Of a stretch of 64,000 nucleotides of DNA, positions 17,667-64,000 are shown in pieces (within the stretch, counting starts at the first letter, position 1; each line of letters starts with the position of its first letter). The DNA is from Tomocerus qinae (taxonomy: Eukaryota; Arthropoda; Collembola; Entomobryomorpha; Tomoceridae). The notes beneath the pieces were generated by a model, which saw nothing but the letters and a program-made list of their open reading frames with translations, searched no databases and was not told the origin of the DNA. A program made the translations under genes and the position numbers. The stretch lies in contig JAECZT010000019.1 in the NCBI GenBank assembly GCA_020055645.1, positions 80,161-144,160 on the forward strand, read 5' to 3'.

Positions 17667-17674
17667 TTTTATAG
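17667..17674. other. Right 8-bp target-site duplication of the hAT element
   Basis: TTTTATAG, identical to 16991-16998. It is followed at once by CTTCTACTATTGTC, the normal SatA continuation. Confidence 0.95.
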
Positions 17675-18296: not shown

Positions 18297-19452
18297 CTAC
18301 TCGAAATCTTTCGAGGCTACTCGAATTCTTTCGATGCCACTCGTATTTTTTCAAAGTTACTCGTATTCTTTCGAGTCTACTCGAGTTGTTTCGAGGGCAC
18401 CCGAATCCTTCCAAGGCTACCTGAGTTCTTTCGAAATTACACGAATTTTTTCGAGACTGCTAGAATTCTTTCAGGGCTACTCGAATCTTTTCGAAGCTAT
18501 TCGAATTTATTCAAAGCTATTTAAATTGTCTCAAGAGTTTTCGAATTCCATCGAGGCAACTCGGATTCTTTCAAACAACAAAGAACTGTTTGGTGGCTAC
18601 TTGAAATCGTTCAAGGCTATTTTAATTATTTCGAAGCTACTAGAATTCTTTTGAGTCTACTTGAATTCGATCTACGACAACTGAAATGTTTCGTGGTGTC
18701 TCGAAGCCTGTTTAGGCTACTGGAATTCTTTCGAGGTTACTCGAATTCTTTCGAGGTTATTCGAATTCTTTCGAGGTTATTCGAATTGTTTCGAGGCTTC
18801 TCGAATCCTTTTAAGGCTACTCGAATTCTTTCGAGGCAACCTGAATTCGTTCGAGGTTACTCGAATTCTTTCGAGGTTACTCGAATTCTTTCGAGGTTAC
18901 TCGAATTCTTTCGAGGTTATTCGAATTGTTTCGAGGCTACTCGAATCCTTTTAAGGCTACTCGAATTCTTTCGAGGCTACTCGAATTCCTTCGAAGCATT
19001 TCGAATTCTTTCGAGGCTACTCGAATCCTTTCGAAGCAACTTGAATTATTTTAAAGCTATTCGATTTCTTTCAAAGATATTCGAAGTGTCTTAAGGGTAC
19101 TCGAATTCCTTAGTGGCTACTCGGATACTTTTAAGCTACAAAGAACTTTTTCGAAGCTACCCGAATTCTTTTGAGGTTACTCGAATTCTTTCGAGGTTAT
19201 TCGAATTGTTTCGAGGCTACTCGAATCCTTTCAAGGCTACTCGAATTCTTTCGAGGCTACCTGAATTCGTTCGAGGTTACTCGAATTCTTTCGAGGCTAC
19301 TCGAATCCTTTCAAGGCTACTCGAATTCTTTCGAGGCTACCTGAATTCGTTCGAGGTTACTCGAATTCTTTCGAGGTTATTCGAATTGTTTCGAGGCTAC
19401 TCGAATCATTTTAAGGCTACTCGAATTCTTTCGAGGCTACCTGAATTCGTTC
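18297..19452 (+). repeat. SatB partial higher-order repeat at the left edge
   Basis: This 1.16-kb stretch precedes the first GAGGCCCGATTTCTTTCG marker at 19453. Its blocks, including CTTGAATTCGATCTACGACA at about 18660 and GGATACTTTTAAGCTACAAA at about 19123, match those just before the markers at 25850 and 33483. It is the end of a HOR copy whose left part was lost at the SatA junction. Confidence 0.7.
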
Positions 19453-22400
19453 GAGGCCCGATTTCTTTCGATGCTACTCGAATTTTTTCGAGGTTACTTG
19501 AAATCCTTCGAGGCTACTCAAATTCTTCCGAGGCTACTGGAATTCTTTCGATGCTACGCGAATTCTTTTGAGGCTACTCGATTTCATTTGATGCTATTTG
19601 AAATCTTGCGAGGCAACTCGAATTTTTTCGAGCCTACTCGAATTCTTTCGAGGCTACTCGAACTATTTCGAAGCTACTCGAATTCTTTCGAGACTACTCA
19701 AACTCTTCCGAGGCTACTCAAACTCTTCCGAGGCTACTCGAATTCTTGCGAGGCTACTAGAATTCTTTGGGGCTCCTCGAATCTTTTCGAAGCTATTCGT
19801 ATTTTTTCAAAGCTGTTTAAATTGTCTCGAAGGTACTCGAATTCCTTCGAGGAAACTCGGATTCTTTCAAACAACAAAGAATTGTTTCGTGGCTACTTGA
19901 ATTCTTTTGAGTCTACTCTAATTCGTTCTACGGCAACTGAATTATTTCGTGGGGTCTCGAAAATCTTTTTAGGCTACTGGAATTTTTTCTTGGCTACTCG
20001 AATTCTTTCGAAGCATTTCGGATTCTTTCGAGGCTACTCGAATCCTTTCGAAGCTACTTGAATTATTTTAAAGCTATTCGATTTCTTTAAAAGATATTCG
20101 AAGTGTCTTAAGGGTACTCGAATTCCTTAGCGGCTACTCGGATACTTTCAAGCTACAAAGAATTTTTTCGAAGCTACGCGAATTCTTTTGAGGTTACTCG
20201 AATTCTTTCGAGGTTACTCGAATTCTTTCGAGGTTACTCGAATTCTTTCGAGGTTACTCGAATTCTTTCGAGGTTACTCGAATTCTTTCGAGGTTACTCG
20301 AATTCTTTCGAGGTTACTCGAATTCTTTCGAGGTTACTCGAATTCTTTCGAGGTGACTCGAATTGTTTCGAGGCTACTCGAATTCTTTCGAAGCTACTCG
20401 AATTCTAGCGAGGCTACTCGAATTCTTTCATGGCTATTCGAATTACTTCAAAGCTATTCGAAGTGTCTTGACAGTACTCCAATTTCTTGGAAGCAACTCG
20501 GATCCTTTCAAGCTACCTAGAATATTTTCGTGGCTACCCGAATTCTTTTGAGGCTACCTTAGTTCGTTCGAGGCTACCCGAGTAATTTCTATGTTACTCG
20601 AATTTTTTCGAGGCTACTCGAAATCTTTCGAGGCTACTCGAAATCTTTCGAGGCTACTCGAAATCTTTCGAGGCTACTCGAAATGTTTCGAGGCTACTCG
20701 AAATGTTTCGAGGCTACTCGAAATGTTTCGAGGCTACTCGAAATCTTTCGAGGCTACTCGAAATCTTTCGAAGCAAGTCGAATTCTTTCGAAGCCACTCG
20801 AATTTTTTCAAAGTTACTCGTATTCTTTCGAGGCTACTCGAATTCTTTCGAGGCTACTCGAATTCTTTCGTGGCTACCCGAATTCTTTTGAGGCTACCTT
20901 AGTTCGTTCGAGGCTACCCGAGTAATTTCTATGTTACTCGAATTTTTTCGAGGCTACTCGAAATCTTTCGAGGCTACTCGAAATCTTTCGAGGATACTCG
21001 AAATCTTTCGAGGCTACTCGAAATGTTTCGAGGCTACTCGAAATGTTTCGAGGCTACTCGAAAACTTTCGAGGCTACTCGAAATCTTTCGAAGCAAGTCG
21101 AATTCTTTCGACGCCACTCGAATTTTTTCAAAGTTAATCGTATTCTTTCGAGGCTACTCGAATTCTTTCGAGGCAACTCCAATTCTTTCGACGCTACTCG
21201 AAGTCTTTCCGAGGCTACTCGAGTTGTTTCGAGGCTACCCGATTCCTTCCAAGGCTACCTGAATTCTTTCGAAATTACTCGAATTCTTTCGAGACTGCTA
21301 AAATTCTTTCAAGTCTACTCGAATCTTATCGAAGCTATTCGAATTTATTCAAAGCTATTTAAATTGTCTCGAGAGTTTTCGAATTCCTTCGAGGCAACTC
21401 GGATTCTTTCAAACAACAAAGAACTGTTTGCTGGCTACTTGAAATCGTTCAAGGCTATTGGAATTATTTCGAAGCTACTAGAATTCTTTTGAGTCTACTT
21501 GAATTCGATCTACGACAACTGAAATGTTTCGTGGTGTCTCGAAGCCTGTTTAGGCTACTGGAATTCTTTCGAGGCTACTCGAATTCTTTCGAGGCTACTT
21601 GAATTCCTTCGAAGCATTTCGAATTCTTTCGAGGCTACTCGAATCCTTTCGAAGCTACTTGAATTATTTTAAAGCTATTCGATTTCTTTCAAAGATATTC
21701 GAAGTGTCTTAAGGGTACTCGAATTCCTTAGTGGCTACTCGGATAGTTTCAAGCTACAAAGAATTTTTTCGAAGCTACCCGAATTCTTTTGAGGTTACTC
21801 GAATTCTTCCGAGGTTACTCGAATTCTTTCGAATTTACTCGAATTCTTTCGAGGTTACTCGAATTCTTTCGAGGTTACTCGAATTCTTTCGAGGTTACTC
21901 GAATTCTTTCGAGGTTACTCGAATTCTTTCGAGGTTACTCGAATTCTTTCGAGGTGACTCGAATTGTTTCGAGGCTACTCGAATCCTTTCGAGGCTACTC
22001 GAATCCTTTCAAGGCTACTCGAATTCTTTCGAGGCTACTCGAATTCTTTCGAGGCTACTCGAATTCTTTCGAAGCTACTCGAATTCTAGCGAGGCTACTC
22101 GAATTCCTTCATGGCTATTCGAATTACTTCAAAGCTATTCGAAGTGTCTTGACAGTACTCCAATTTCTTGGAAGCAACTCGGATCCTTTCAAGCTACCTA
22201 GAATATTTTCGCGGCTACCCGAATTCTTTTGAGGCTACCTTAGTTCGTTCGAGGCTACCCGAGTAATTTCTATGTTACTCGAATTTTTTCGAGGCTACTC
22301 GAAATCTTTCGAGAATACTCGAAATCTTTCGAGGCTACTCGAAATCTTTCGAAGCAAGTCGAATTCTTTCGACGCCACTCGAATTTTTTCAAAGTTACTC

Positions 22401-25400
22401 GTATTCTTTCGAGGCTACTCGAATTCTTTCGAGGCTACTCGAATTCTTTCGAGGCTACTCGAATTCTTTCGAGGCTACTCGAATTCTTTCGAGGCTACTC
22501 GAATTCTTTCGAGGCTACTCGAATTCTTTCGAAGGCTACTCGAATTCTTTCGAGGCTACTCGAATTCTTTCGAGGCTACTCGAATTCTTTCGAGGCAACT
22601 CCAATTCTTTCGACGCTACTCGAAGTCTTTCGAGGCTACTCGAGTTGTTTCGAGGCTACCCGAATCCTTCCAAGGCTACCTCAATTCTTTCGAAATTACT
22701 CGAATTCTTTCGAGACTGCTAGAATTCTTTCAAGTCTACTCGAATCTTATCGAAGCTATTCGAATTTATTCAAAGCTATTTAAATTGTCTCGAGAGTTTT
22801 CGAATTTCTTCGAGGCAACTCGGATTCTTTCAAACAACAAAGAACTGTTTGCTGGCTACTTGAAATCGTTCAAGGCTATTGGAATTATTTCGAAGCTACT
22901 AGAATTCTTTTGAGTCTACTTGAATTCGATCTACGACAACTGAAATGTTTCGTGGTGTCTCGAAGCCTGTTTAGGCTACTGGATTTCTTTCGAGGCTACT
23001 CGAATTCTTTCGAGCTACTCGAATTCCTTCGAAGCATTTCGAATTCTTTCGAGGCTACTCGAAATGTTTCGAGGCTACTCGAAATGTTTCGAGGCTACTC
23101 GAAATCTTTCGAGGCTACTCGAAATCTTTCGAAGCAAGTCGAATTCTTTCGAAGCCACTCGAATTTTTTCAAAGTTACTCGTATTCTTTCGAGGCTACTC
23201 GAATTCTTTCGAGGCTACTCGAATTCTTTCGTGGCTACCCGAATTCTTTTGAGGCTACCTTAGTTCGTTCGAGGCTACCCGAGTAATTTCTATGTTACTC
23301 GAATTTTTTCGAGGCTACTCGAAATCTTTCGAGGCTACTCGAAATCTTTCGAGGCTACTCGAAATCTTTCGAGGATACTCGAAATCTTTCGAGGCTACTC
23401 GAAATGTTTCGAGGCTACTCGAAATGTTTCGAGGCTACTCGAAATGTTTCGAGGCTACTCGAAAACTTTCGAGGCTACTCGAAAACTTTCGAGGCTACTC
23501 GAAATCTTTCGAAGCAAGTCGAATTCTTTCGACGCCACTCGAATTTTTTCAAAGTTACTCGTATTCTTTCGAGGCTACTCGAATTCTTTCGAGGCAAATC
23601 CAATTCTTTCGACGCTACTCGAAGTCTTTCGAGGCTACTCGAGTTGTTTCGAGGCTACCCGAATCCTTCCAAGGCTACCTGAATTCTTTCGAAATTACTC
23701 GAATTCTTTCGAGACTGCTAAAATTCTTTCAAGTCTACTCGAATCTTATCGAAGCTATTCGAATTTATTCAAAGCTATTTAAATTGTCTCGAGAGTTTTC
23801 GAATTCCTTCGAGGCAACTCGGATTCTTTCAAACAACAAAGAACTGTTTGCTGGCTACTTGAAATCGTTCAAGGCTATTGGAATTATTTCGAAGCTACTA
23901 GAATTCTTTTGAGTCTACTTGAATTCGATCTACGACAACTGAAATGTTTCGTGGTGTCTCGAAGCCTGTTTAGGCTACTGGAATTCTTTCGAGGCTACTC
24001 GAATTCTTTCGAGGATACTCGAATTCCTTCGAAGCATTTCGAATTCTTTCGAGGCTACTCGAATCCTTTCGAAGCTACTTGAATTATTTTAAAGCTATTC
24101 GATTTCTTTCAAAGATATTCGAAGTGTCTTAAGGGTACTCGAATTCCTTAGTGGCTACTCGGATACTTTCAAGCTACAAAGAATTTTTTCGAAGCTACCC
24201 GAATTCTTTTGAGGTTACTCGAATTCTTTCGAGGTTACTCGAATTCTTTCGAATTTACTCGAATTCTTTCGAGGTTACTCGAATTCTTTCGAGGTTACTC
24301 GAATTCTTTCGAGGTTACTCGAATTCTTTCGAGGTTACTCGAATTCTTTCGAGGTTACTCGAATTCTTTCGAGGTGACTCAAATTGTTTCGAGGCTACTC
24401 GAATCCTTTCGAGGCTACTCGACACCTTTCAAGGCTACTCGAATTCTTTCGAGGCTACTCGAATTCTTTCGAGGCTACTCGAATTCTTTCGAAGCTACTC
24501 GAATTCTAGCGAGGCTACTCGAATTCCTTCATGGCTATTCGAATTACTTCAAAGCTATTCGAAGTGTCTTGACAGTACTCCAATTTCTTGGAAGCAACTC
24601 GGATCCTTTCAAGCTACCTAGAATATTTTCGCGGCTACCCGAATTCTTTTGAGGCTACCTTAGTTCGTTCGAGGCTACCCGAGTAATTTCTATGTTACTC
24701 GAATTTTTCAGAGGCTACTCAAAATCTTTCGAGGCTACTCGAAATCTTTCGAGGCTACTCGAAATCTTTCGAGGCTACTCGAATTCTTTCGAGGCTACTC
24801 GAATTCTTTCGAGGCTACTCGAATTCTTTCGAGGCTACTCGAATTCTTTCGAGGCTACTCGAATTCTTTCGAGCTACTCGAATTCTTTTGAGGCTACTCG
24901 AATTCTTTCGAGGCTACTCGAATTCTTTGGAGGCTACTCGAATTCTTTCGAGGCAACTCCAATTCTTTCGACGCTACTCGAAGTCTTTCGAGGCTACTCG
25001 AGTTGTTTCGAGGCTACCCGAATCCTTCCAAGGCTACCTCAATTCTTTCGAAATTACTCGAATTCTTTCGAGACTGCTAGAATTCTTTCAAGTCTACTCG
25101 AATCTTATCGAAGCTATTCGAATTTATTCAAAGCTATTTAAATTGTCTCGAGAGTTTTCGAATTCCTTCGAGGCAACTCGGATTCTTTCAAACAACAAAG
25201 AACTGTTTGCTGGCTACTTGAAATCGTTCAAGGCTATTGGAATTATTTCGAAGCTACTAGAGTTCTTTTGAGTCTACTTGAATTCGATCTACGACAACTG
25301 AAATGTTTCGTGGTGTCTCGAAGCCTGTTTAGGCTACTGGATTTCTTTCGTGGCTACTCGAATTCTTTCGAGGCTACTCGAATTCCTTCGAAGCATTTCG

Positions 25401-27106
25401 AATTCTTTCGAGGCTACTCGAATCCTTTCGAAGCTACTTGAATTATTTTAAAGCTATTCGATTTCTTTCAAAGATATTCGAAGTGTCTTAAGGGTACTCG
25501 AATTCTTTAGTGGCTACTCGGATACTTTTAAGCTACAAAGAACTTTTTCGAAGCTACCCGAATTCTTTTGAGGTTACTCGAATTCTTTCGAGGTTATTCG
25601 AATTGTTTCGAGGCTACTCGAATCCTTTCAAGGCTACTCGAATTCTTTCGAGGCTACCTGAATTCGTTCGAGGTTACTCGAATTCTTTCGAGGCTACTCG
25701 AATCCTTTCAAGGCTACTCGAATTCTTTCGAGGCTACCTGAATTCGTTCGAGGTTACTCGAATTCTTTCGAGGTTATTCGAATTGTTTCGAGGCCACTCG
25801 AATCCTTTTAAGGCTACTCGAATTCTTTCGAGGCTACCTGAATTCGTTCGAGGCCCGATTTCTTTCGATGCTACTCGAATTTTTTCGAGGTTACTTGAAA
25901 TCCTTCGAGGCTACTCAAATTCTTCCGAGGCTACTGGAATTCTTTCGATGCTACGCGAATTCTTTTGAGGCTACTCGATTTCATTTGATGCTATTCGAAA
26001 TCTTGCGAGGCAACTCGAATTTTTTCGAGCCTACTCGAATTCTTTCGAGGCTACTCGAACTATTTCGAAGCTACTCGAATTCTTTCGAGACTACTCAAAC
26101 TCTTCCGAGGCTACTCGAATTCTTGCGAGGCTACTAGAATTCTTTGGGGCTCCTCGAATCTTTTCGAAGCTATTCGTATTTTTTCAAAGCTGTTTAAATT
26201 GTCTCGAAGGTACTCGAATTTCTTCGAGGAAACTCGGATTCTTTCAAACAACAAAGAATTGTTTCGTGGCTACTTGAATTCTTTTGAGTCTACTCTAATT
26301 CGTTCTACGGCAACTGAATTATTTCGTGGGGTCTCGAAAATCTTTTTAGGCTACTGGAATTCTTTCGAGGCTACTCGAATTCTTTCGAAGCATTTCGGAT
26401 TCTTTCGAGGCTACTCGAATCCTTTCGAAGCTACTTGAATTATTTTAAAGCTATTCGATTTCTTTAAAAGATATTCGAAGTGTCTTAAGGGTGCTCGAAT
26501 TCCTTAGCGGCTACTCGGATACTTTCAAGCTACAAAGAATTTTTTCGAAGCTACCCGATTTCTTTTGAGGTTACTCGAATTCTTTCGAGGTTACTCGAAT
26601 TCTTTCGAGGTTACTCGAATTCTTTCGAGGTTACTCGAATTCTTTCGAGGTGACTCGAATTGTTTCGAGGCTACTCGAATCCTTTCGAGGCTACTCGAAT
26701 CCTTTCGAGGCTACTCGAATCCTTTCGAGGCTACTCGAATCCTTTCAAGGCTACTCGAATTCTTTCGAGGCTACTCGAATTCTAGCGAGGCTACTCGAAT
26801 TCCTTCATGGCTATTCGAATTACTTCAAAGCTATTCGAAGTGTCTTGACAGTACTCCAATTTCTTGGAAGCAACTCGGATCCTTCCAAGCTACCTAGAAT
26901 ATTTTCGTGGCTACCCGAATTCTTTTGAGGTTACTCGAATTCTTTCGAGGTTATTCGAATTGTTTCGAGGCTACTCGAATTCTTTCGAGGCTCCCTGAAT
27001 TCGTTCGAGGTTACTCGAATTCTTTCGAGGCTACTCGAATCCTTTCGAGGCTACTCGAATCCTTTCAAGGCTACTCGAATTCTTTCGAGGCTACCTGAAT
27101 TCGTTC
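19453..27106 (+). repeat. SatB higher-order repeat copy 1, about 7.65 kb
   Basis: Bounded by successive in-register occurrences of the rare variant GAGGCCCGATTTCTTTCG at 19453 and 27107. The marker occurs once more inside, at 25850. Long stretches match copy 2 at offsets of 7631-7654 bp. The copy also contains an internal duplication of about 2.42 kb (blocks near 21731-22232 recur near 24151-24652). No non-satellite insert is present; the position where copies 3 and 4 carry one is intact at 22731-22740 (CAAGTCTACT). Confidence 0.85.
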
Positions 27107-30100
27107 GAGGCCCGATTTCTTTCGATGCTACTCGAATTTTTTCGAGGTTACTTGAAATCCTTCGAGGCTACTCAAATTCTTCCGAGGCTACTGGAATTCT
27201 TTCGATGCTACGCGAATTCTTTTGAGGCTACTCGATTTCATTTGATGCTATTTGAAATCTTGCGAGGCAACTCGAATTTTTTCGAGCCTACTCGAATTCT
27301 TTCGAGGCTACTCGAACTATTTCGAAGCTACTCGAATTCTTTCGAGACTACTCAAACTCTTCCGAGGCTACTCAAACTCTTCCGAGGCTACTCGAATTCT
27401 TGCGAGGCTACTAGAATTCTTTGGGGCTCCTCGAATCTTTTCGAAGCTATTCGTATTTTTTCAAAGCTGTTTAAATTGTCTCGAAGGTACTCGAATTCCT
27501 TCGAGGAAACTCGGATTCTTTCAAACAACAAAGAATTGTTTCGTGGCTACTTGAATTCTTTTGAGTCTACTCTAATTCGTTCTACGGCAACTGAATTATT
27601 TCGTGGGGTCTCGAAAATCTTTTTAGGCTACTGGAATTTTTTCTTGGCTACTCGAATTCTTTCGAAGCATTTCGGATTCTTTCGAGGCTACTCGAATCCT
27701 TTCGAAGCTACTTGAATTATTTTAAAGCTATTCGATTTCTTTAAAAGATATTCGAAGTGTCTTAAGGGTACTCGAATTCCTTAGCGGCTACTCGGATACT
27801 TTCAAGCTACAAAGAATTTTTTCGAAGCTACGCGAATTCTTTTGAGGTTACTCGAATTCTTTCGAGGTTACTCGAATTCTTTCGAGGTTACTCGAATTCT
27901 TTCGAGGTTACTCGAATTCTTTCGAGGTTACTCGAATTCTTTCGAGGTTACTCGAATTCTTTCGAGGTTACTCGAATTCTTTCGAGGTTACTCGAATTCT
28001 TTCGAGGTGACTCGAATTGTTTCGAGGCTACTCGAATTCTTTCGAAGCTACTCGAATTCTAGCGAGGCTACTCGAATTCTTTCATAACTATTCGAATTAC
28101 TTCAAAGCTATTCGAAGTGTCTTGACAGTACTCCAATTTCTTGGAAGCAACTCGGATCCTTTCAAGCTACCTAGAATATTTTCGTGGCTACCCGAATTCT
28201 TTTGAGGCTACCTTAGTTCGTTCGAGGCTACCCGAGTAATTTCTATGTTACTCGAATTTTTTCGAGGCTACTCGAAATCTTTCGAGGCTACTCGAAATCT
28301 TTCGAGGCTACTCGAAATCTTTCGAGGCTACTCGAAATGTTTCGAGGCTACTCGAAATGTTTCGAGGCTACTCGAAATGTTTCGAGGCTACTCGAAATCT
28401 TTCGAGGCTACTCGAAATCTTTCGAAGCAAGTCGAATTCTTTCGAAGCCACTCGAATTTTTTCAAAGTTACTCGTATTCTTTCGAGGCTACTCGAATTCT
28501 TTCGAGGCTACTCGAATTCTTTCGTGGCTACCCGAATTCTTTTGAGGCTACCTTAGTTCGTTCGAGGCTACCCGAGTAATTTCTATGTTACTCGAATTTT
28601 TTCGAGGCTACTCGAAATCTTTCGAGGCTACTCGAAATCTTTCGAGGATACTCGAAATCTTTCGAGGCTACTCGAAATGTTTCGAGGCTACTCGAAATGT
28701 TTCGAGGCTACTCGAAAACTTTCGAGGCTACTCGAAATCTTTCGAAGCAAGTCGAATTCTTTCGACGCCACTCGAATTTTTTCAAAGTTAATCGTATTCT
28801 TTCGAGGCTACTCGAATTCTTTCGAGGCAACTCCAATTCTTTCGACGCTACTCGAAGTCTTTCGAGGCTACTCGAGTTGTTTCGAGGCTACCCGATTCCT
28901 TCCAAGGCTACCTGAATTCTTTCGAAATTACTCGAATTCTTTCGAGACTGCTAAAATTCTTTCAAGTCTACTCGAATCTTATCGAAGCTATTCGAATTTA
29001 TTCAAAGCTATTTAAATTGTCTCGAGAGTTTTCGAATTCCTTCGAGGCAACTCGGATTCTTTCAAACAACAAAGAACTGTTTGCTGGCTACTTGAAATCG
29101 TTCAAGGCTATTGGAATTATTTCGAAGCTACTAGAATTCTTTTGAGTCTACTTGAATTCGATCTACGACAACTGAAATGTTTCGTGGTGTCTCGAAGCCT
29201 GTTTAGGCTACTGGAATTCTTTCGAGGCTACTCGAATTCTTTCGAGGCTACTTGAATTCCTTCGAAGCATTTCGAATTCTTTCGAGGCTACTCGAATCCT
29301 TTCGAAGCTACTTGAATTATTTTAAAGCTATTCGATTTCTTTCAAAGATATTCGAAGTGTCTTAAGGGTACTCGAATTCCTTAGTGGCTACTCGGATAGT
29401 TTCAAGCTACAAAGAATTTTTCGAAGCTACCCGAATTCTTTTGAGGTTACTCGAATTCTTCCGAGGTTACTCGAATTCTTTCGAATTTACTCGAATTCTT
29501 TCGAGGTTACTCGAATTCTTTCGAGGTTACTCGAATTCTTTCGAGGTTACTCGAATTCTTTCGAGGTTACTCGAATTCTTTCGAGGTGACTCGAATTGTT
29601 TCGAGGCTACTCGAATCCTTTCGAGGCTACTCGAATCCTTTCAAGGCTACTCGAATTCTTTCGAGGCTACTCGAATTCTTTCGAGGCTACTCGAATTCTT
29701 TCGAAGCTACTCGAATTCTAGCGAGGCTACTCGAATTCCTTCATGGCTATTCGAATTACTTCAAAGCTATTCGAAGTGTCTTGACAGTACTCCAATTTCT
29801 TGGAAGCAACTCGGATCCTTTCAAGCTACCTAGAATATTTTCGCGGCTACCCGAATTCTTTTGAGGCTACCTTAGTTCGTTCGAGGCTACCCGAGTAATT
29901 TCTATGTTACTCGAATTTTTTCGAGGCTACTCGAAATCTTTCGAGAATACTCGAAATCTTTCGAGGCTACTCGAAATCTTTCGAAGCAAGTCGAATTCTT
30001 TCGACGCCACTCGAATTTTTTCAAAGTTACTCGTATTCTTTCGAGGCTACTCGAATTCTTTCGAGGCTACTCGAATTCTTTCGAGGCTACTCGAATTCTT

Positions 30101-51299: not shown

Positions 51300-52330
51300 A
51301 AATGCGAGTGTCTTCTAATAAATTCGAGTGACTTCGAATATATTTGAGTTCCTTCGAATAGATTCAAGTGGCTTCGAATAAACTCGAGTGCCTTCGAATA
51401 AATTCGAGTGCCTTCGTATAAATTCGAGTGCCTTCGAATAGATTCGAGCGCCTTCGAATAGATTCGAGTGCCTTCGAATAAATTCGAGTGGCTTCGAATA
51501 AACTCGACTGCCTTCGAATAAATTTGAGTGGATTCGAATAAACTCGACTGCCTTCGAATAAATTTGAGTGGCTTCGAATAAACTCCACTGCCTTCCAATA
51601 AATTTGAGTGGCTTCGAATAAACTCGACTGCCTTCGAATAAATTTGAGTGCCCTCGAACAAATGCTAGTTTCTTCGAATAAATTTGAGTGGTTTCGAATA
51701 AATTCGAGACCCTTCGAATAAATTACAGTACCTTCGAATAGATTCGAGTGCTTTAGAATAAATTAGTGTGCCTTCGAATAGATTCTAGTGCCTTCGAATA
51801 AATTCGAGTCCCTTCGAATAAATTCCATAGCATTCGAATAAATTCGAATGATTTCGAATGTATTCGAGTAACTTCCAATAAATTCGACTGCATTTAAATT
51901 CGGCTGCGTTCGAAAAAATTAAAATGCAATGGAAGAAATCCGAGTTTCTTCGATAGATTGTTGTGCCTTCGAATAGATTCGATTGCCCTCGTATAGATTC
52001 GAGAGCCTTCGAATAAACTCGAGTGCCTTCGAATAAATTCGAGTGCCGTCAAATAGATTCGAGTTCCTTCGAATAGATTCGAGTGGCTTCGATGAAATTC
52101 GAGTGATTTTTAATAAATTCGGTTGCGTTTGAAAAAATTCGAGTGCATTCTAATAAATTCGAGTGCCTTCGAATAAATTCGAGAGCTATCGAATAGATTC
52201 GAGTGACTTCGAATATATTTGAGTGCCTTCGAATAGATTCAAGTGGCTTCGATTAAATTCGAGTGACTTTTAATAAATTCGGTTGCGTTCGAAAAAATTC
52301 GAGTACATTCCAATAAATTCGACTGCCTTC
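51300..52330 (-). repeat. SatC block duplicated at about 57115-58145
   Basis: Distinctive variants recur 5814 bp downstream: GCCCTCGAACAAATGCTAGT at about 51650 and 57464, the shortened unit CGACTGCATTTAAATTCGGC at about 51890 and 57703, and GTGCCGTCAAATAGATTCGA at 52045 and 57859. The two blocks differ by a few unit insertions and substitutions. Exact edges are uncertain. Confidence 0.7.
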
Positions 52331-55300
52331 GTATAAATTCTAGTGCAATCAAAGAAATGCGAGTTTCATCGAATAAATTTGAGTGGCTTCGAATAAACTC
52401 GAGTGCCTTCGAATGTATTCGAGCACCTTCCAATAAATTCGACTGCCTTCGAATAAATTCGTGTGTCACCGAATTAATTCGAGTGCTTTTGAAAATATTC
52501 GACCCCTTTCGAATAAATTCGGGTACCTTCGAATAAATTTGAGTGCCATCGAATAAATTCGAAAGCTATCGAATAAATTCGAGTGCCTTCAAATAAATTC
52601 GAGTATCTTCGATTAACTTCGATGGACTTTTAATAAATTCGGCTGCGTTCGAAAAAATTCCAGTGAAATCGAAGAAATGCGAGTTTTTTCGTATAAATTT
52701 GAGTGGCTTCGAATAAACTCGAGTGCCGTCGAATATATTCGAGTGCCATCAAATAAATTCGGGTGCCTTCGAATAGATTCGAGTGATTTAGAATAAGTTC
52801 GAGTGCTTTCGAATCAATTCGAGTGCTTTCGAATAAATTCGAGTGCTTTTGAATAAATTCGAGTGCCTTCGAATAAATTCGAGTGCCTTCCAATAAATTC
52901 GAGTGCCTTCGAATAAATTCGAGTGCCTTGGAATAAATTCGAGTGCTTTCGAATAAATTCGAGTGCTTTCGAATAAATTCGAGTGCATTCGAATAAATTC
53001 GAGTGCCTTCGAATAAATTCGAGTGCCTTCCAATAAATTCGAGTGCCTTCGAATAAATTCGAGTGCCTTGGAATAAATTCGAGTGCTTTCGAATAAATTC
53101 GAGTGCTTTCGAATAAATTCGAGTGCATTCGAATAAATTCGAGTGCCTTCGAATAAATTCGAGAGTTATCGAATAGATTCGAGAGTTATCGAATAGATTC
53201 GAGAGTTATCGAATAGATTCGAGTGACTTCGAATATATTTGAGTGCCTTCGAATAGATTCAAGTGGCTTCGATTAAATTCGAGTGATTTTTAATAAATTC
53301 GGTTGCGTTCGAAAAAATTCGAGTACATTCCAATAAATTCGACTGCCTTTGTATAAATTCTAGTGTAATCAAATAAATACGAGTTTCTTCGAATAAATTT
53401 GAGTGGCTTCGAATAAATTCGAGTGCCTTCGAATAAATTCGAGTGCCTTCGAATAACTTCGAGGGCCTTCGAATAAATTCGAGTGCCTTCGAATGTATTC
53501 GAGCACCTTCCAATAAAATCGACTGCCTTCGAATAAATTCGTGTGTCACCGAATTAATTCGAGTGCTTTTGAAAATATTGGACCCCTTTCAAATAAATTC
53601 GGGTACCTTCGAATAACTTTCAGTGCCTTCGAATAAACTCGGATACCTTCGAATAAAATGGCGTGCCTTCGAACAAATGCGAGTGCCATCGAATAAATTC
53701 GAAAGCTATCGAATAAATTCGAGTGCCTTCGATTAAATTCGAGGGACTTTTCATAAATTCGGCTGCATTCGAAAAAATTCCAGTGCAATCGAAGAAATGC
53801 GAGTTTCTTAGAATAAATTTGAGTTGCTTCGAATAAACTTGAGTTCCTTCGATTAAATTCGAGTATCTTCGATTAAATTCGAGGGACTTTTAATAAATTC
53901 GGCTGCATTCGAAAAAATTCCAGTGCAATCGAAGAAATGCGAGTTTCTTCGAATAAATTTGAGTTGCTTCGAATAAACTCGAGTGCCTTCGAATATATTC
54001 GAGTGCCATCAAATAAATTCGGGTGCCTTCGAATGGATTCGAGTGCTTTAGAATAGATTGTTGTGCCTTCGAATAGATTCGATTGCCCTCGAATAAATTC
54101 GAGTGGCTTCGAATAAACTCGACTGCCTTCGAATAAATTTGAGTGGCTTCGAATAAACTCGACTGCCTTCGAATAAATTTGAGTGGCTTCGAATAAACTC
54201 GACTGCCTTCGAATAAATTTGAGTGGCTTCGAATAAACTCGTCTGCTTTCGAATAAATTTGAGTGGTTTCGAATAAATTCGAGACCCTTCGAATAAATTA
54301 CAGTACCTTCGAATAGATTCGAGTGCTTTAGAATAAATTAATGTGCCTTCGAATAGATTCTAGTGCTTTCGAATAAATTCGAGTGCCTTCGAATAAATTC
54401 TATAGCCTTCGAATAAATTCGAGTGATTTCGAATGTATTCGAGTGCTTTCGAATAAATTCCAGTGCCTTTGAATAAATTCGAGTGCCTTCCAATAAATTC
54501 GAGTGCCTTCGAATAAATTCGAGTGCCTTGGAATAAATTCGAGTGCTTTCGAATAAATTCGAGTGCTTTCGAATAAATTCGAGTGCTTTCGAATAAATTC
54601 GAGTGCTTTCGAATAAATTCGAGTGCATTCGAATAAATTCGAGTGCATTCGAATAAATTCGAGAGCTATCGAATAGATTCGAGTGACTTCGAATATATTC
54701 GACTGCCTTCGTATAAATTCTAGTGTAATCAAAGAAATACGAGTTTCTTCGAATAAATTTGAGTGGCTTCGAATAAATTCGAGTGGCTTCGAATAAATTC
54801 GAGTGCCTTCGAATAACTTCGAGTGCCTTCGAATAAATTCGAGTGCCTTCGAATGTATTCGAGCACCTTCCAATAAATTCGACTGCCTTCGAATAAATTC
54901 GTGTGTCACCGAATTAATTCGAGTGCTTTTGAAAATATTGGACCCCTTTCAAATAAATTCGGGTACCTTCGAATAACTTTCAGTGCCTTCGAATAAACTC
55001 GGATACCTTCGAATAAATTGGCGTGCCTTTGAACAAATGCGAGTGCCATCGAATAAATTCGAAAGCTATCGAATAAATTCGAGTGCCTTCGATTAAATTC
55101 GAGTATCTTCGATTAAATTCGAGGGACTTTTAATAAATTCGGCTGCATTCGAAAAAATTCCAGTGCAATCGAAGAAATGCGAGTTTCTTCGAATAAATTT
55201 GAGTTGCTTCGAATAAACTCGAGTGCCTTCGAATATATTCAAGTGCCATCAAATAAATTCGGGTGCCTTCGAATGGATTCGAGTACTTTAGAATAGATTG

Positions 55301-55776
55301 TTGTGCCTTCGAATAGATTCGATTGCCCTCGAATGGATTCGAGTGCCTTCGAATAGATTCGATTGCCCTCGAATGGATTCGAGTGCCTTCGAATAGATTC
55401 GATTGCCCTCGAATAGATTCGAGTGCCTTCGAATATATTCGAGTGCCATCAAATAAATTCGGGTGCCTTCGAATAGATTCGAGTGCTTTAGAATAAGTTC
55501 GAGTGCTTTCGAATAAATTCGAGTGCTTTCGAATAAATTCGAGTGCATTTGAATAAATTTGAGTGCCTTCGAGTAAATTCGAGAGCTATCGAATAGATTC
55601 GAGTGACTTCGAATATATTTGAGTGCCTTCGAATAGATTCAAGTGGCTTCGATTAAATTCGAGTGACTTTTAATAAATTCGGTTGCGTTCGAAAAAATTC
55701 AAGTACATTCTAATAAATTCGACTGCCTTCGTATAAAATGTAGTGTAATCAAGCAAATGCGAGTTTCTTCGAATAA

Positions 55777-56609
55777 ATTTGAGTGGCTTCGAATAAACTC
55801 GAGTGCCTTCGAATAAATTCGAGTGCCATCAAATAGATTCGGGTTCCTTCGAATAAATTCGAGTGGTTCCGATGAAATTCGAGTGATTTTTAATAAATTG
55901 GGATGCGTTTGAAAAAATTCGAGTGCATTCTAATAAATTCGAGTGCCTTCGAATAAATTCGAGTGCCTTTGAATAAATTCGAGTGCCTTCGAATAAATTC
56001 GAGTGCCTTCGAATAAATTCGAGTGCCTTCGAATATTTTCGAGTGCCTTCGAATAAATTCGAGTGCCTTCGAATAAATTCGAGTGCCTTCGAATAAATTC
56101 GATTGCCTTCGAATGTATTCGAGCACCTTCCAATAAATTCGACTGCCTTCGAATAAATTCGTGTGTCACCGAATTAATTCGAGTGCTTTTGAAAATATTC
56201 GACCTCTTTCGAATAAATTCGGGTACCTTCGAATAACTTTCAGTGCCTTCGAATAAACTCGGATACCTTCGAATAAATTGGCGTGCCTTCGAACAAATGC
56301 GAGTGCCTTTAATAAATTCGAATTCCTACAAGTATATTTCAGTGGCATCGAATAAATTCGAGTGCACAAGAATATAATTGGGTGCCTTGAAAAAAATTCG
56401 AGTGCCCTCGAATAAATTCGAGTGCCTTCGAAAGTATTAGAGCACCTTCCAATAAATTCGACTGCCTTCGAATAAATTCGAGTTTCACCAAATTAATTCA
56501 TGTGCTTTTGAAAATATTAGACTCCTTTCGAATCAATTCGGGTACACTCGAATAAATTCGAGTGGTTCCGATGAAATTCGAGTGATTTTTAATAAATTGG
56601 GATGCGTTT
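55777..56609 (-). repeat. SatC block repeated at the right edge of the window (copy 1)
   Basis: About 830 bp that match 63168-64000 at offset 7391 bp, including GGTTCCGATGAAATTCGAGT, TGGGATGCGTTTGAAAAAAT, CCTACAAGTATATTTCAGTG and CACAAGAATATAATTGGGTG. The match runs to the last base of the window, so the true length is unknown. Confidence 0.8.
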
Positions 56610-57856
56610 GAAAAAATTCGAGTGCATTCTAATAAATTCGAGTGCCTTCGAATAAATTCGAGTGCCTTCGAATAAAATCGAGTGCCTTCGAATATTTTCG
56701 AGTGCCTTCGAATAAATTCGAGTGCCTTCGAATAAATTTGAGTGCCTTCGAATGTATTCGAGCACCTTCCAATAAATTCGACTGCCTTCGAATAAATTCG
56801 TGTGTCACCGAATTAATTCGAGTGCTTTTGAAAATATTCGACCTCTTTCGAATAAATTCGAGTGCCTTCGAATGTATTCGAGCACCTTCCAATAAATTCG
56901 ACTGCCTTCGAATAAATTCGAGTGCCTTTGATTAAATTCGAGTATCTTCGATTAAATTCGAGGGACTTTTAATAAATTCGGCTGCGTTCGAAAAAATTTC
57001 AGTGCAATCGAAGAAATGCGAGTTTTTTCGAATAAATTTGAGTGGCTTCGAATAAACTCGAGTGCCGTCGAATATATTCGAGTGCCATCAAATAAATTCG
57101 GGTTTCTTCGATTGGATTCGAGTGCTTTAAAATAGATTGTTGTGCCTTCGAATAGATTCGATTGCCCTCGAATAAATGCGAGTGTCTTCTAATAAATTCG
57201 AGTGTCTTCGAATAAATTCGAGTGCCTACGAATAAATTCGAGTGCCTTTGAATAAATTCGAGTGCCTTCGAATAAATTCGAGTGCCTTCGAATAGATTCG
57301 AGCGCCTTCGAATAGATTCGAGTGCCTTCGAATAAATTCGAGTGGCTTCGAATAAACTCGACTGCCTTCGAATAAATTTGAGTGGATTCGAATAAACTCC
57401 ACTGCCTTCGAATAAATTTGAGTGGCTTCGAATAAACTCGACTGCCTTCGAATAAATTTGAGTGCCCTCGAACAAATGCTAGTTTCTTCGAATAAATTTG
57501 AGTGGTTTCGAATAAATTCGAGACCCTTCGAATAAATTACAGTACCTTCGAATAGATTCGAGTGCTTTAGAATAAATTAGTGTGCCTTCGAATAGATTCT
57601 AGTGCCTTCGAATAAATTCGATTCCCTTCGAATAAATTCCATAGCATTCGAAATAATTCGAGTGATTTCGAATGTATTCGAGTAACTTCCAATAAATTCG
57701 ACTGCATTTAAATTCGGCTGCGTTCGAAAAAATTAAAGTGCGATCGAAGAAATCCGAGTTTCTTCGATAGATTGTTGTGCCTTCGAATAGATTCGATTGC
57801 CCTCGTATAGATTCGAGAGCCTTCGAATAAACTCGAGTGCCTTCGAATAAATTCGA

Positions 57857-60173
57857 GTGCCGTCAAATAGATTCGAGTTCCTTCGAATAGATTCGAGTGG
57901 CTTCGATGAAATTCGAGTGATTTTTAATAAATTCGGTTGCGTTTGAAAAAATTCGAGTGCATTCTAATAAATTCGAGTGCCTTCGAATAAATTCGAGAGC
58001 TATCGAATAGATTCGAGTGACTTCGAATATATTTGAGTGCCTTCGAATAGATTCAAGTTGCTTCGATTAAATTCGAGTGACTTTTAATAAATTCGGTTGC
58101 GTTCGAAAAATTCGAGTACATTCCAATAAATTCGACTGCCTTCGTATAAATTCTAGTGCAATCAGAGAAATGCGAGTTTCTTCGAATAAATTTGAGTGGC
58201 TTCGAATAAACTCGAGTGCCTTCGAATAAATTCGAGTGACTTCGAATATCTTCGAGTGCCTTCGAATAAATTCGAGTGCCTTCGAATAAATTCGAATGCC
58301 TTCGAATGTATTCGAGCACCTTCCAATAAATTCGACTGCCTTCGAATAAATTCGTGTGTCACCGAATTAATTCGAGTGCTTTTGAAAATATTCGACCCCT
58401 TTCGAATAAATTCGGGTACTTTCGAATAAATTTGAGTGCCATCGAATAAATTCGAAAGCTATCGAATAAATTCGAGTGCCTTCAAATAAATTCGAGTATC
58501 TTCGATTAAATTCGATGGTCTTTTAATAAATTCGGCTGCGTTCGAAAAATTCCAGTGAAATCGAAGAAATGCGAGTTTTTCGAATAAATTTGAGTGGCTT
58601 CGAATAAACTCGAGTGCCGTCGAATATATTCGAGTGCCATCAAATAAATTCGGGTGCCTTCGAATAGATTCGAGTGATTTAGAATAAGTTCGAGTGCTTT
58701 CGAATAAATTCGAGTGCTTTCGAATAAATTCGAGTGCTTTCGAATAAATTCGAGTGCCTTCGAATAAATTCGAGTGCCTTCGAATAAATTCGAGTGCCTT
58801 GGAATAAATTCGAGTGCCTTGGAATAAATTCGAGTGCTTTCGAATAAAATCGAGTGCTTTCGAATAAATTCGAGTGTATTCGAATAAATTCGAGTGCCTT
58901 CGAATAAATTCGAGAGTTATCGAATAGATTCGAGAGTTATCGAATAGATTCGAGTGACTTCGAATATATTTGAGTGCCTTCGAATAGATTCAAGTTGCTT
59001 CGATTAAATTCGAGTGACTTTTAATAAATTCGGTTGCGTTCGAAAAAATTCGAGTACATTCCAATAAATTCGACTGCCTTCGTATAAATTCTAGTGTAAT
59101 CAAAGAAATACGAGTTTCTTCGAATAAATTTGAGTGGCTTCGAATAAACTCGAGTGCCTTCGAATAAATTCGAGTGACTTCGAATATCTTCGAGTGCCTT
59201 CGAATAAATTCGAGTGCCTTCGAATAAATTCGAATGCCTTCGAATGTATTCGAGCACCTTCCAATAAATTCGAGTGCTTTCGAATAAATTCGAGTGCTTT
59301 CGAATAAATTCGAGTGCATTCGAATAATTTCGAGTGCCTTCGAATAAATTCGAGAGTTATCGAATAGATTCGAGAGTTATCGAATAGATTCGAGTGACTT
59401 CGAATATATTTGAGTGCCTTCGAATAGATTCAAGTGGCTTCGATTAAATTCGAGTGACTTTTAATAAATTCGGTTGCGTTCGAAAAAATTCGAGTACATT
59501 CCAATAAATTCGACTGCCTTTGTATAAATTCTAGTGTAATCAAAGAAATACGAGATTCTTCGAATAAATTTGAGTGGCTTCGAATAAATTCGAGTGCCTT
59601 CGAATAAATTCGAGTGCCTTCGAATAAATTCGAGTGCCTTCGAATAACTTCGAGGGCCTTCGAATAAATTCGAGTGCCTTCGAATGTATTCGAGCACCTT
59701 CCAATAAAATCGACTGCCTTCGAATAAATTCGTGTGTCACCGAATTAATTCGAGTGCTTTTGAAAATATTGGACCCCTTTCAAATAAATTCGGGTACCTT
59801 CGAATAACTTCCAGTGCCTTCGAATAAACTCGGATACCTTCGAATAAAATGGAGTGCCTTCGAACACATGCGAGTGCCATCGAATAAATTCGAAAGCTAT
59901 CGAATAAATTCGAGTGCCTTCGATTAAATTCGAGTATCTTCGATTAAATTCGAGGGACTTTTAATAAATTCCGCTGCATTCGAAAAAATTCCAGTGCAAT
60001 CGAAGAAATGCGAGTTTCTTCGAATAAATTTGAGTTGCTTCGAATAAACTCGAGTGCCTTCGAATATATTCGAGTGCCATCAAATAAATTCGAGTGCCTT
60101 CGAATGGATTCGAGTGCTTTAGAAAAGATTGTTGTGCCTTCGAATAAACTCGAGTGCCTTCGAATAAATTCAA
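57857..60173 (-). repeat. SatC tandem block of about 2.32 kb, copy 1
   Basis: Starts at GTGCCGTCAAATAGATTCGA and is followed directly by a near-identical copy at 60174. Shared landmarks at offsets of 2317-2320 bp include the ATCTTCGAGTGCCTTCGAAT block, the pair GAGAGTTATCGAATAGATTC, and TTAATAAATTCCGCTGCATT near 59962 and 62282. Confidence 0.8.
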
Positions 60174-62459
60174 GTGCCGTCAAATAGATTCGAGTTCCTT
60201 CGAATAGATTCGAGTGGCTTCGATGAAATTCGAGTGATTTTTAATAAATTCGGTTGCGTTTGAAAAAATTCGAGTGCATTCTAATAAATTCGAGTGCCTT
60301 CGAATAAATTCGAGAGCTATCGAATAGATTCGAGTGACTTCGAATATATTTGAGTGCCTTCGAATAGATTCAAGTTGCTTCGATTAAATTCGAGTGACTT
60401 TTAATAAATTCGGTTGCGTTCGAAAAAATTCGAGTACATTCCAATAAATTCGACTGCCTTCGTATAAATTCTAGTGCAATCAAAGAAATGCGAGTTTCTT
60501 CGAATAAATTTGAGTGGCTTCGAATAAACTCGAGTGCCTTCGAATAAATTCGAGTGACTTCGAATATCTTCGAGTGCCTTCGAATAAATTCGAGTGCCTT
60601 CGAATAAATTCGAATGCCTTCGAATGTATTCGAGCACCTTCCAATAAATTCGACTGCCTTCGAATAAATTCGTGTGTCACCGAATTAATTCGAGTGCTTT
60701 TGAAAATATTCGACCCCTTTCGAATAAATTCGGGTACCTTCGAATAAATTTGAGTGCCATCGAATAAATTCGAAAGCTATCGAATAAATTCGAGTGCCTT
60801 CAAATAAATTCGAGTATCTTCGATTAAATTCGATGGTCTTTTAATAAATTCGGCTGCGTTCGAAAAAATTCCAGTGAAATCGAAGAAATGCGAGTTTTTT
60901 CGAATAAATTTGAGTGGCTTCGAATAAACTCGAGTGCCGTCGAATATATTCGAGTGCCATCAAATAAATTCGGGTGCCTTCGAATAGATTCGAGTGATTT
61001 AGAATAAGTTCGAGTGCTTTCGAATAAATTCGAGTGCTTTCGAATAAATTCGAGTGCTTTCGAATAAATTCGAGTGCCTTCGAATAAATTCGAGTGCCTT
61101 CGAATAAATTCGAGTGCCTTGGAATAAATTCGAGTGCCTTGGAATAAATTCGAGTGCTTTCGAATAAAATCGAGTGCTTTCGAATAAATTCGAGTGTATT
61201 CGAATAAATTCGAGTGCCTTCGAATAAATTCGAGAGTTATCGAATAGATTCGAGAGTTATCGAATAGATTCGAGTGACTTCGAATATATTTGAGTGCCTT
61301 CGAATAGATTCAAGTGTCTTCGATTAAATTCGAGTGACTTTTAATAAATTCGGTTGCGTTCGAAAAAATTCGAGTACATTCCAATAAATTCGACTGCCTT
61401 CGTATAAATTCTAGTGTAATCAAAGAAATACGAGTTTCTTCGAATAAATTTGAGTGGCTTCGAATAAATTCGAGTGCCTTCCAATAAATTCGAGTGCTTT
61501 CGAATAAATTCGAGTGCCTTCGAATAAATTCGAGTGCCTTCCAATAAATTCGAGTGCCTTCGAATAAATTCGAGTGCCTTGGAATAAATTCGAGTGCTTT
61601 CGAATAAATTCGAGTGCTTTCGAATAAATTCGAGTGCATTCGAATAATTTCGAGTGCCTTCGAATAAATTCGAGAGTTATCGAATAGATTCGAGAGTTAT
61701 CGAATAGATTCGAGTGACTTCGAATATATTTGAGTGCCTTCGAATAGATTCAAGTGGCTTCGATTAAATTCGAGTGACTTTTAATAAATTCGGTTGCGTT
61801 CGAAAAAATTCGAGTACATTCCAATAAATTCGACTGCCTTTGTATAAATTCTAGTGTAATCAAAGAAATACGAGATTCTTCGAATAAATTTGAGTGGCTT
61901 CGAATAAATTCGAGTGCCTTCGAATAAATTCGAGTGCCTTCGAATAAATTCGAGTGCCTTCGAATAACTTCGAGGGCCTTCGAATAAATTCGAGTGCCTT
62001 CGAATGCATTCGAGCACCTTCCAATAAAATCGACTGCCTTCGAATAAATTCGTGTGTCACCGAATTGATTCGAGTGCTTTTGAAAATATTGGACCCCTTT
62101 CAAATAAATTCGGGTACCTTCGAATAACTTCCAGTGCCTTCGAATAAACTCGGATACCTTCGAATAAAATGGAGTGCCTTCGAACACATGCGAGTGCCAT
62201 CGAATAAATTCGAAAGCTATCGAATAAATTCGAGTGCCTTCGATTAAATTCGAGTATCTTCGATTAAATTCGAGGGACTTTTAATAAATTCCGCTGCATT
62301 CGAAAAAATTCCAGTGCAATCGAAGAAATGCGAGTTTCTTCGAATAAATTTGAGTTGCTTCGAATAAACTCGAGTGCCTTCGAATATATTCGAGTGCCAT
62401 CAAATAAATTCGAGTGCCTTCGAATGGATTCGAGTGCTTTAGAATAGATTGTTGTGCCT
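60174..62459 (-). repeat. SatC tandem block of about 2.3 kb, copy 2
   Basis: Second copy of 57857-60173. Similarity fades at about 62460, where copy 1 continues with GTGCCTTCGAATAAACTCGA and this copy continues with a GATTCGATTGCCCTCGAATA stretch. One internal segment, around 61461-61640, has gained units compared with copy 1. Confidence 0.78.
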
Positions 62460-63167
62460 TCGAATAGATTCGATTGCCCTCGAATAGATTCGAGTGCCTT
62501 CGAATAGATTCGATTGCCCTCGAATAGATTCGAGTGCCTTCGAATAAATTCGAGTGCCTTCGAATAAATTCCAGTGCCTTCGAATAAATTCGAGTGACTT
62601 CGAATAAATTCCAGTGCCTTCGAATAAATTCGTGTGTCTCCGAATAAATTCGAGTGCTTTTGAAAATATTCGACCCCTTTCGAATAAATTCGGGTACCTT
62701 CGAATAACTTTCAGTGCCTTCGAATAAACTCGGATACCTTCGAATAAATTGGCGCGCCTTCGAACAAATGCGTGTGCCTTTGAATAAATTCGAATTCCTA
62801 CAAGTATATTTCAGTGGCATCGAATAAATTCGAGTGCACAAGAATATAATTGGGTGCCTTCGAAAAAATTCGAGTGCATTCGAATAAATTCGAGTGCTTT
62901 CGAATAAATTGGAGTGCTTTCGAATAAATTCGAGTGCCTTCGAATAAATGCGACTGCCTTCTAATAAATTCGAGTATCTTCGAATAAATTCGAGTGCCTT
63001 CGAATAAATTCGAGTGCCTTCGAATAAATTCGAGTGCCTTCGAATAAATTCGAGTGCCTTCGAATAAATTCGAGTGCCTTCGAATAAATTCGAGTGCCTT
63101 CGAATAGTTTCGAGTGCCTTCGAATAAATACGAGTGGCTTCGAATAAACTCGACTACCTTCGAATAA

Positions 63168-64000
63168 ATTTGAGTGGCTTCGAATAAACTCGAGTGCCTT
63201 CGAATAAATTCGAGTGCCATCAAATAGATTCGGGTTCCTTCGAATAAATTCGAGTGGTTCCGATGAAATTCGAGTGATTTTTAATAAATTGGGATGCGTT
63301 TGAAAAAATTCGAGTGCATTCTAATAAATTCGAGTGCCTTCGAATAAATTCGAGTGCCTTTGAATAAATTCGAGTGCCTTCGAATAAATTCGAGTGCCTT
63401 CGAATAAATTCGAGTGCCTTCGAATATTTTCGAGTGCCTTCGAATAAATTCGAGTGCCTTCGAATAAATTCGAGTGCCTTCGAATAAATTCGATTGCCTT
63501 CGAATGTATTCGAGCACCTTCCAATAAATTCGACTGCCTTCGAATAAATTCGTGTGTCACCGAATTAATTCGAGTGCTTTTGAAAATATTCGACCTCTTT
63601 CGAATAAATTCGGGTACCTTCGAATAACTTTCAGTGCCTTCGAATAAACTCGGATACCTTCGAATAAATTGGCGTGCCTTCGAACAAATGCGAGTGCCTT
63701 TATTAAATTCGAATTCCTACAAGTATATTTCAGTGGCATCGAATAAATTCGAGTGCACAAGAATATAATTGGGTGCCTTGAAAAAAATTCGAGTGCCTTC
63801 GAATAAATTCGAGTGCCTTCGAAAGTATTAGAGCACCTTCCAATAAATTCGACTGCCTTCGAATAAATTCGAGTTTCACCAAATTAATTCATGTGCTTTT
63901 GAAAATATTAGACTCCTTTCGAATCAATTCGGGTACACTCGAATAAATTCGAGTGGTTCCGATGAAATTCGAGTGATTTTTAATAAATTGGGATGCGTTT
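63168..64000 (-). repeat. SatC block repeated at the right edge of the window (copy 2)
   Basis: Counterpart of 55777-56609. It suggests that SatC also has a long HOR of about 7.4 kb, with only the beginning of the next copy visible. One difference seen is TTTATTAAATTC here against TTTAATAAATTC in copy 1. Confidence 0.78.

What the first reader, a model, noticed from the sequence alone, without database searches (positions are those of the whole stretch)
18297..64000. Two adjacent 20-bp satellites are one family in opposite orientations
The SatB unit GGCTACTCGAATTCTTTCGA and the reverse complement of the SatC unit, AGGCACTCGAATTTATTCGA, agree at about 15 of 20 positions with no gap. The cycles translated from opposite strands also line up: LEFFRGYSNSFEATRILSRL against LEFIRRHSNLFEGTRIYSKA, 12 of 20 identical. 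The array thus switches strand and subfamily at about 49535. A large inverted arrangement of diverged subfamilies could mark an inversion breakpoint, a centromere core edge or a palindromic chromosome structure. Orientation and identity are seen; the shared origin is inferred.
Basis: partly seen in the sequence, partly recalled or inferred. Interest (0 to 1): 0.75.

Follow-up and report, generated by a model that had tools for sequence, protein, structure and literature searches.

The report
Two related palindromic-core satellite arrays abutting
Two neighbouring blocks of 20-letter repeated DNA share a short mirror-symmetric core every 10 letters and look like one family; they probably run in opposite directions, but direction is weakly defined because each unit already resembles its own mirror copy, and no strong large palindrome is formed.

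Summary
The arrays are real: B (18297 to about 49534) and C (from there to the window end), both of period 20, each in one orientation at 1-kb scale. B matches reverse-complemented C at 15 of 20 positions, direct C at 12. But each unit is two palindromic YTCGAR cores 10 bp apart plus two 4-bp linkers, so C matches its own reverse complement at 14 of 20 and B at 12. With cores kept and linkers permuted, 15 of 20 is reached in 27%; other tests give P 0.057 to 0.24. Kinship is well supported; opposite orientation is favoured (18 versus 0 unit pairs within two mismatches) but not proven. The junction is abrupt and out of register, and B with C pairs about a fifth as strongly as B with inverted B. 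Inversion breakpoint, centromere edge and palindromic chromosome have no positive support beyond this weak pairing. The genome itself could not be searched.

The parts
1..18296 (+). Satellite A, about 630-bp unit, AT-rich (about 26% GC); neighbour of the 20-bp arrays, no relation to them detected
   Evidence: 28 copies of a 300-nt reference stretch with start-to-start spacing 620-633, and 1308 over the insert; autocorrelation peak at 630; GC; longest exact match to B or C in either orientation 12-13 nt
18297..49534 (+). Satellite B, 20-bp unit GGCTACTCGAATTCTTTCGA = cores CTCGAA and TTCGAG with linkers TTCT and GCTA; irregular higher-order duplications, strongest lags about 7.6-7.9 kb
   Evidence: TRF 1562.7 copies; profile; blocks 98-99% identical at lags 7632, 7654, 7877, from a search that keeps only stretches of at least 95%; 1286 complete monomers of 1563, 146 distinct
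49535..64000 (-). Satellite C, 20-bp unit TTCGAATAAATTCGAGTGCC = cores TTCGAA and TTCGAG with linkers TAAA and TGCC; put on the minus strand because its reverse complement matches B best; runs to the window end
   Evidence: TRF 722.9 copies; profile; blocks 96-98% identical at lags 2320, 5814, 7391 (same threshold); 710 complete monomers of 725, 213 distinct
49518..49549 (.). B/C junction TTCGAGGCTACCTGAATTCGAATATATTCGAG; B's CCTGAATTCG, normally followed by TTCGAG, here runs into C
   Evidence: sequence; TCGA positions change from 9 to 5 modulo 10; CCTGAATTCG occurs 26 times, 25 followed by TTCGAG and 1, here, by AATATA; the string GAATTCGAATATATTCGAG occurs once
38852..39309 (.). About 460-bp non-satellite insert inside B
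   Evidence: alignment to one copy without it (18402-18580); copy at +7877 identical at 463 of 464 positions compared; low B score in this window
46729..47186 (.). Second copy of the same insert, carried by a higher-order duplication
   Evidence: block 38177-40600 v 46054-48477, lag 7877, 98.7%

Best explanation
B and C are two subfamilies of one short-period satellite family whose shared element is a palindromic core YTCGAR repeated every 10 bp, with two different 4-bp linkers making the period 20. They diverged mainly in the linkers, were each amplified separately from a small set of monomers by segmental (higher-order) duplication, and now meet at one join that probably arose by out-of-register recombination at a TTCG match. 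Because the core class reads the same on both strands, array orientation is a weak property; the linkers favour opposite orientation (my estimate about 85% if they are homologous). The likely role is that of ordinary non-coding heterochromatin, perhaps pericentromeric. Shown: arrays, cores, similarity beyond composition, duplicated blocks, abrupt out-of-register junction. Inferred: common descent rather than convergence, the recombination event, heterochromatin.
For: Period 20 in both arrays. TCGA spacing is 10 most often in both. Whole-unit shuffles reach 15/20 in 5 of 40,000, whole-column permutations reach the profile match in 0 of 20,000. Near-identical units: 18 of 31,098 distinct monomer pairs lie within 2 mismatches inverted, 0 direct. 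Self-dyads B 12/20, C 14/20. Separate amplification: duplicated blocks with different lags in B and C. Junction out of register with no rise of the C models on the B side. Two array ORFs searched, one per satellite, gave no protein at E <= 0.001.
Against: With cores held fixed, similarity and orientation are not beyond chance (P 0.057 to 0.27), so convergence on the same core is not excluded: 19 bacterial contig stretches carry short 10-bp repeats with this core. The longest exact inverted match, 19 nt, is no longer than in three simulated pairs of arrays with independent columns (19-27). Within arrays the cores are only slightly more conserved than the linkers (P 0.155 for B, 0.068 for C). 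Register jumps are not rare inside B either: 64 of 1788 close TCGA spacings, and 10 of 980 in C. No genome-wide intermediates could be sought.
Confidence: 0.72

Rival explanations
1. True inversion: an ancestral single-orientation 20-bp array had one side inverted, after which the two sides diverged into B and C; the point at 49535 is the old inversion breakpoint.
For: Inverted match 15/20 v 12/20 direct; 66 v 0 shared 12-mers; of the 25 longest inverted pairs shown (of 152), 24 join B to C and one lies within C; B+C folds 15.7 kcal/mol below B plus flipped C, standard error 1.0.
Against: Orientation difference P 0.057 to 0.19 under linker permutation. The junction is out of core register, although exchange between palindromic cores would keep it; this is only moderate evidence, as register jumps also occur inside B. 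The two sides have different duplicated blocks. Separate amplification in opposite orientation explains the same facts.
Confidence: 0.15
2. Convergence: two unrelated satellites that share only a palindromic core, kept by a dimeric DNA-binding protein or by DNA structure.
For: Beyond the cores the linkers match at 4 of 8 positions; a best match of 4 or more arises in 48% of linker shuffles. Ten-bp repeats with the same core are found in bacterial contigs.
Against: Same period, same two-core layout and physical contact of the arrays; monomers one mismatch apart over 20 bp. Cores not clearly more conserved than linkers within arrays.
Confidence: 0.1
3. Assembly artefact at 49535 joining two arrays that do not touch in the genome.
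For: Long tandem arrays are often misassembled (general knowledge); the junction is abrupt and its sequence occurs once in the window.
Confidence: 0.1

Closest known systems
Tribolium madens major and minor satellites TmSat1/TmSat2 (PMC13081366; abstract, section 7 part 1, section 10 part 1 and passages read)
   Same: Two related satellites derived from one ancestral unit (about 110 bp there) lying side by side, with short (<10 bp) inverted repeats inside the units and changes of orientation in the region.
   Different: [quoted passage not shown] Here neither satellite switches at 1-kb scale, the inverted arms are 70-74% complementary, the unit is 20 bp, and only one junction is available, so conservation of the junction cannot be judged.
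Human satellites HSat2 and HSat3 (PMC4022460; four passages read)
   Same: Two related families from a short ancestral repeat in large heterochromatic regions; [quoted passage not shown]
   Different: Pentameric ancestor (CATTC strand in that paper), which is not palindromic; here a 10-bp-spaced palindromic core.
Short dyad-symmetry centromeric DNA (Kasinathan and Henikoff model as described in PMC9070824; passages read)
   Same: Dense short dyads: YTCGAR 54 per kb in B, 56 in C, 0.11 in A.
   Different: No evidence of centromere position or CENP-A here; the same paper reports that dyads are not a common feature of D. melanogaster centromeres (the Y centromere excepted).

Membership tests
Satellite DNA | Long head-to-tail array of one unit | tested here: met
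   TRF 1562.7 and 722.9 copies of period 20
Satellite DNA | No conserved protein encoded | tested here: inconclusive
   2 of 8 array ORFs of at least 250 aa searched, one per satellite: no protein at E <= 0.001; the other 6 not searched
One satellite family (B and C) | Unit similarity beyond whole-unit shuffles | tested here: met
   5 of 40,000 shuffles; 0 of 20,000 column permutations
One satellite family (B and C) | Similarity beyond the shared palindromic core | tested here: inconclusive
   P 0.088 to 0.27 for match strength with cores fixed
One satellite family (B and C) | Intermediate units elsewhere in the genome | not tested
   The genome search did not complete; inside the window 18 v 0 pairs within 2 mismatches
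Macro-dyad satellite (Tribolium type) | Inverted subarrays of the same satellite | tested here: not met
   One orientation in 31 of 31 and 15 of 15 windows; reversed runs of at most 31 bp
Macro-dyad satellite (Tribolium type) | Arms that pair about as strongly as an inverted copy of one satellite | tested here: not met
   Fold gain B+C -21.2 v -95.1 kcal/mol for B with reversed B, 300-nt arms, 60 samples each; the weaker gain is real, 15.7 below the flipped control
Centromeric or pericentromeric satellite | Location at the centromere or CENP-A association | not testable with these tools
   No chromosome map, organism name or chromatin data

The most novel reading that the evidence does not exclude
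A satellite family built on a palindromic core placed about once per helical turn, so that strand polarity is nearly lost and subfamilies can be flipped freely; opposite-strand subfamilies then make a diverged macro-dyad, an arrangement that the authors of PMC13081366 say has been documented only in Tribolium (passage read). The once-per-turn cores could be a ladder of sites for one dimeric chromatin protein.
Probability: 0.1. Interest if true: 0.6.

Novelty: new member of a known kind. Interest (0 to 1): 0.3.

Why it matters
It is a clear example of how a palindromic core can make satellites look like inverted copies of each other, and it gives a control (permute linkers, keep cores) that should be run before any claim of strand-switched satellites. 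If the genome held many B/C junctions of both polarities, this family would test whether strand polarity matters at all for such arrays.

Tried and rejected
Coding repeat: eight stop-to-stop frames of at least 250 aa in the window lie on B plus (6) and C minus (2). This follows from consensi that lack stops on those strands; two of the eight were searched and found no relative. Rejected.

Relation of A to B or C: longest exact matches are 12-13 nt in either orientation, and a model scan of A gave best 20-mers of 11.6-14.2 bits, where B and C windows average 20 or more; no shuffled control was run for A. Not pursued.

Relatives elsewhere: a B dimer, a C dimer, a 30-nt string of A and the generic six-core pattern gave 0 matches in viral contigs. 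The generic pattern in genome contigs gave 19 stretches; I looked at about 140-200 bases of each and read them as short, unrelated bacterial repeats. Both tools note that records of the window's own genome may be left out. No Rfam match at gathering thresholds. Six strings of the units were in 0 papers of the held library; in general searches I judged listings by title and abstract start and saw no matching satellite. The organism stays unknown; that it is a eukaryote is inferred.

Minority-variant test at mismatched columns: variants toward the other satellite exceed the same-substitution control at 6 of 10 columns for the inverted alignment (1 clearly and 1 marginally of 5 in B, 4 of 5 in C) and at 10 of 16 for the direct one. 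It does not favour either orientation.

CpG decay as a clock: C-to-T at CpG columns is no higher than at other C columns; no use.
Full report
What is there. The window is made of three tandem arrays. A: units of about 630 bp to about 18296 (28 copies of a 300-nt reference stretch). B: 20-bp units from 18297. C: 20-bp units from about 49535 to the end. Consensus units re-derived by wrap-around alignment are GGCTACTCGAATTCTTTCGA (B; 203 inserted and 215 deleted positions over the array) and TTCGAATAAATTCGAGTGCC (C; 3 and 19).

Kinship. Against whole shuffles of C, a match of 15 or more in either orientation and any phase occurs in 5 of 40,000 (1.25e-4). With position profiles, expected identity is 0.617 inverted and 0.516 direct, and 0 of 20,000 whole-column permutations reach 0.617. 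So the units are more alike than composition allows.

Why that is not enough for orientation. Written from a core, B is TTCGAG-GCTA-CTCGAA-TTCT, C is TTCGAG-TGCC-TTCGAA-TAAA and the reverse complement of C is TTCGAA-GGCA-CTCGAA-TTTA. The cores YTCGAR are palindromic as a class and 10 bp apart, so they match on either strand. C matches its own reverse complement at 14 of 20 positions and B its own at 12 of 20. Only eight linker positions and the core edges speak about orientation. Keeping cores and permuting linkers: 15 of 20 or better in 27%, and an orientation difference of 3 or more in 15-18% (20,000 shuffles of each of two kinds); profile match P 0.13, orientation difference P 0.085 (20,000), or 0.24 and 0.19 when linkers are permuted only within themselves; gapped match P 0.108, difference P 0.112 (250); shared 12-mers P 0.095, difference P 0.057 (1,500); B positions better fitted by C, P 0.20 (300); amino-acid match P 0.196 (5,000). 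These tests share the same data and are not independent.

What favours opposite orientation. Shared 12-mers are 66 inverted and 0 direct (59 and 0 on complete C monomers). Among 146 by 213 distinct complete monomers (31,098 pairs), 18 pairs are within two mismatches inverted and 0 direct; the nearest are one mismatch apart, for example AGCCACTCGAATTTTTTCAA in B (4 copies) and the reverse complement of TTTGAAAAAATTCGAGTGCC in C (1 copy). Linker-permutation P for these is 0.19 (minimum), 0.105 (mean nearest), 0.085 (orientation difference) and 0.088 (pairs within four) (400). Incomplete monomers were left out: 277 of 1563 in B, 15 of 725 in C. If B and C are homologous, opposite orientation is in my judgement about 85% likely; that is an estimate, not a computed value.

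What does not favour it. Minority variants at mismatched columns exceed their control at 6 of 10 columns inverted and 10 of 16 direct. The longest exact inverted match, 19 nt, is no longer than in three simulated pairs of arrays with independent columns (19, 21, 27); the longest direct match, 11 nt, is shorter than simulated (16-17), so real arrays share less in the direct sense than independent columns would give.

No strong macro-palindrome. Each array keeps one orientation at 1-kb scale: 31 of 31 windows of B and 15 of 15 of C (the window 17501-18500, mostly A, is not counted). The 25 longest of 152 inverted pairs are 70-74% complementary; 24 join B and C, one lies in C. Folding 300-nt pieces as DNA, 60 samples each: B and C joined gain 21.2 kcal/mol over apart, B joined to reversed B gains 95.1; mean energies are B+C -117.7, B with flipped C -102.0, B+B -99.0, C+C -105.7, B+reversed B -189.4, C+reversed C -214.9. 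So a weak complementarity between B and C is real (15.7 kcal/mol below the flipped control, standard error 1.0), but it is small beside a true inverted array. A first run with 8 samples gave -115.2 and -107.3 for B+C and flipped. The real junction with 300-nt arms folds at -108.6 against -41.2 and -54.5 for the arms alone, with 500-nt arms -201.3 against -69.0 and -107.4. Single pieces of B and C fold about twice as stably as mononucleotide shuffles (8 samples each), in line with local dyads.

The junction. In the stretch 49301-49800 TCGA positions are at residue 9 modulo 10 up to 49519 and at residue 5 from 49535. Exchange between two palindromic cores would keep the register, so the join probably used an out-of-register match; B's CCTGAATTCG is followed by TTCGAG in 25 of 26 places and by C sequence at the junction. 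This is moderate evidence only: 64 of 1788 close TCGA spacings in B and 10 of 980 in C are also off register. In 100-bp scans the B score falls to 18.1 and 12.5 in the last two B windows, without a rise of either C model, and C scores 27.0 in the next one. The 14-nt palindrome TCGAATATATTCGA at the junction is not special: it occurs at 12 places, 11 of them further inside C.

Amplification. B contains blocks 98-99% identical at lags of 7632, 7654 and 7877, C blocks 96-98% identical at 2320, 5814 and 7391, in a search limited to stretches of at least 95%. So each array has been homogenised by its own segmental duplications. Cores are slightly more conserved than linkers inside each array, not significantly (B P 0.155, C P 0.068).

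Comparison. The nearest described case that I read is Tribolium madens, where two related satellites form macro-dyads with conserved inversion sites (PMC13081366; abstract, two section parts and passages). Its defining features, inverted subarrays of one satellite and strongly pairing arms, were tested here and not met in this window. HSat2/HSat3 (PMC4022460, passages) are a looser parallel. Dense short dyads fit the non-B-DNA idea of centromeres described in PMC9070824 (passages), but nothing here shows a centromere.

Limits. The window shows one junction only and ends inside C.

Noticed in passing
16999-17666: A 668-bp hAT-like miniature element in one satellite A unit: the first 14 bases CAGGGCTTGAAAAA match the reversed end CAGGGCATGAAAAA at 13 (over 40 bases only 16 match), flanked by an 8-bp duplication TTTTATAG, with AAAAACCC/GGGTTTTT runs inside. 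The hAT label rests on recalled features (8-bp duplication, CAGGG ends).
   Followed up: partly
38852-39309 and 46729-47186: A 458-bp non-satellite insert in B, present twice at a lag of 7877 and identical at 463 of 464 positions compared, so it was copied recently with a higher-order duplication.
   Followed up: partly
1-18296: Satellite A seems to have at least two subtypes: in repeat families D1 and D3 copies of one 300-bp stretch are either 90-100% or 61-75% alike.
   Followed up: no
1-64000: CpG is over-represented (observed/expected 1.42 in A, 1.77 in B, 2.26 in C), and C-to-T change at CpG columns of B and C is not raised: no sign of methylation decay.
   Followed up: partly
L001-L019: Nineteen bacterial contig stretches hold short 10-bp tandem repeats with the same YTCGAR core, apparently independent.
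   Followed up: partly
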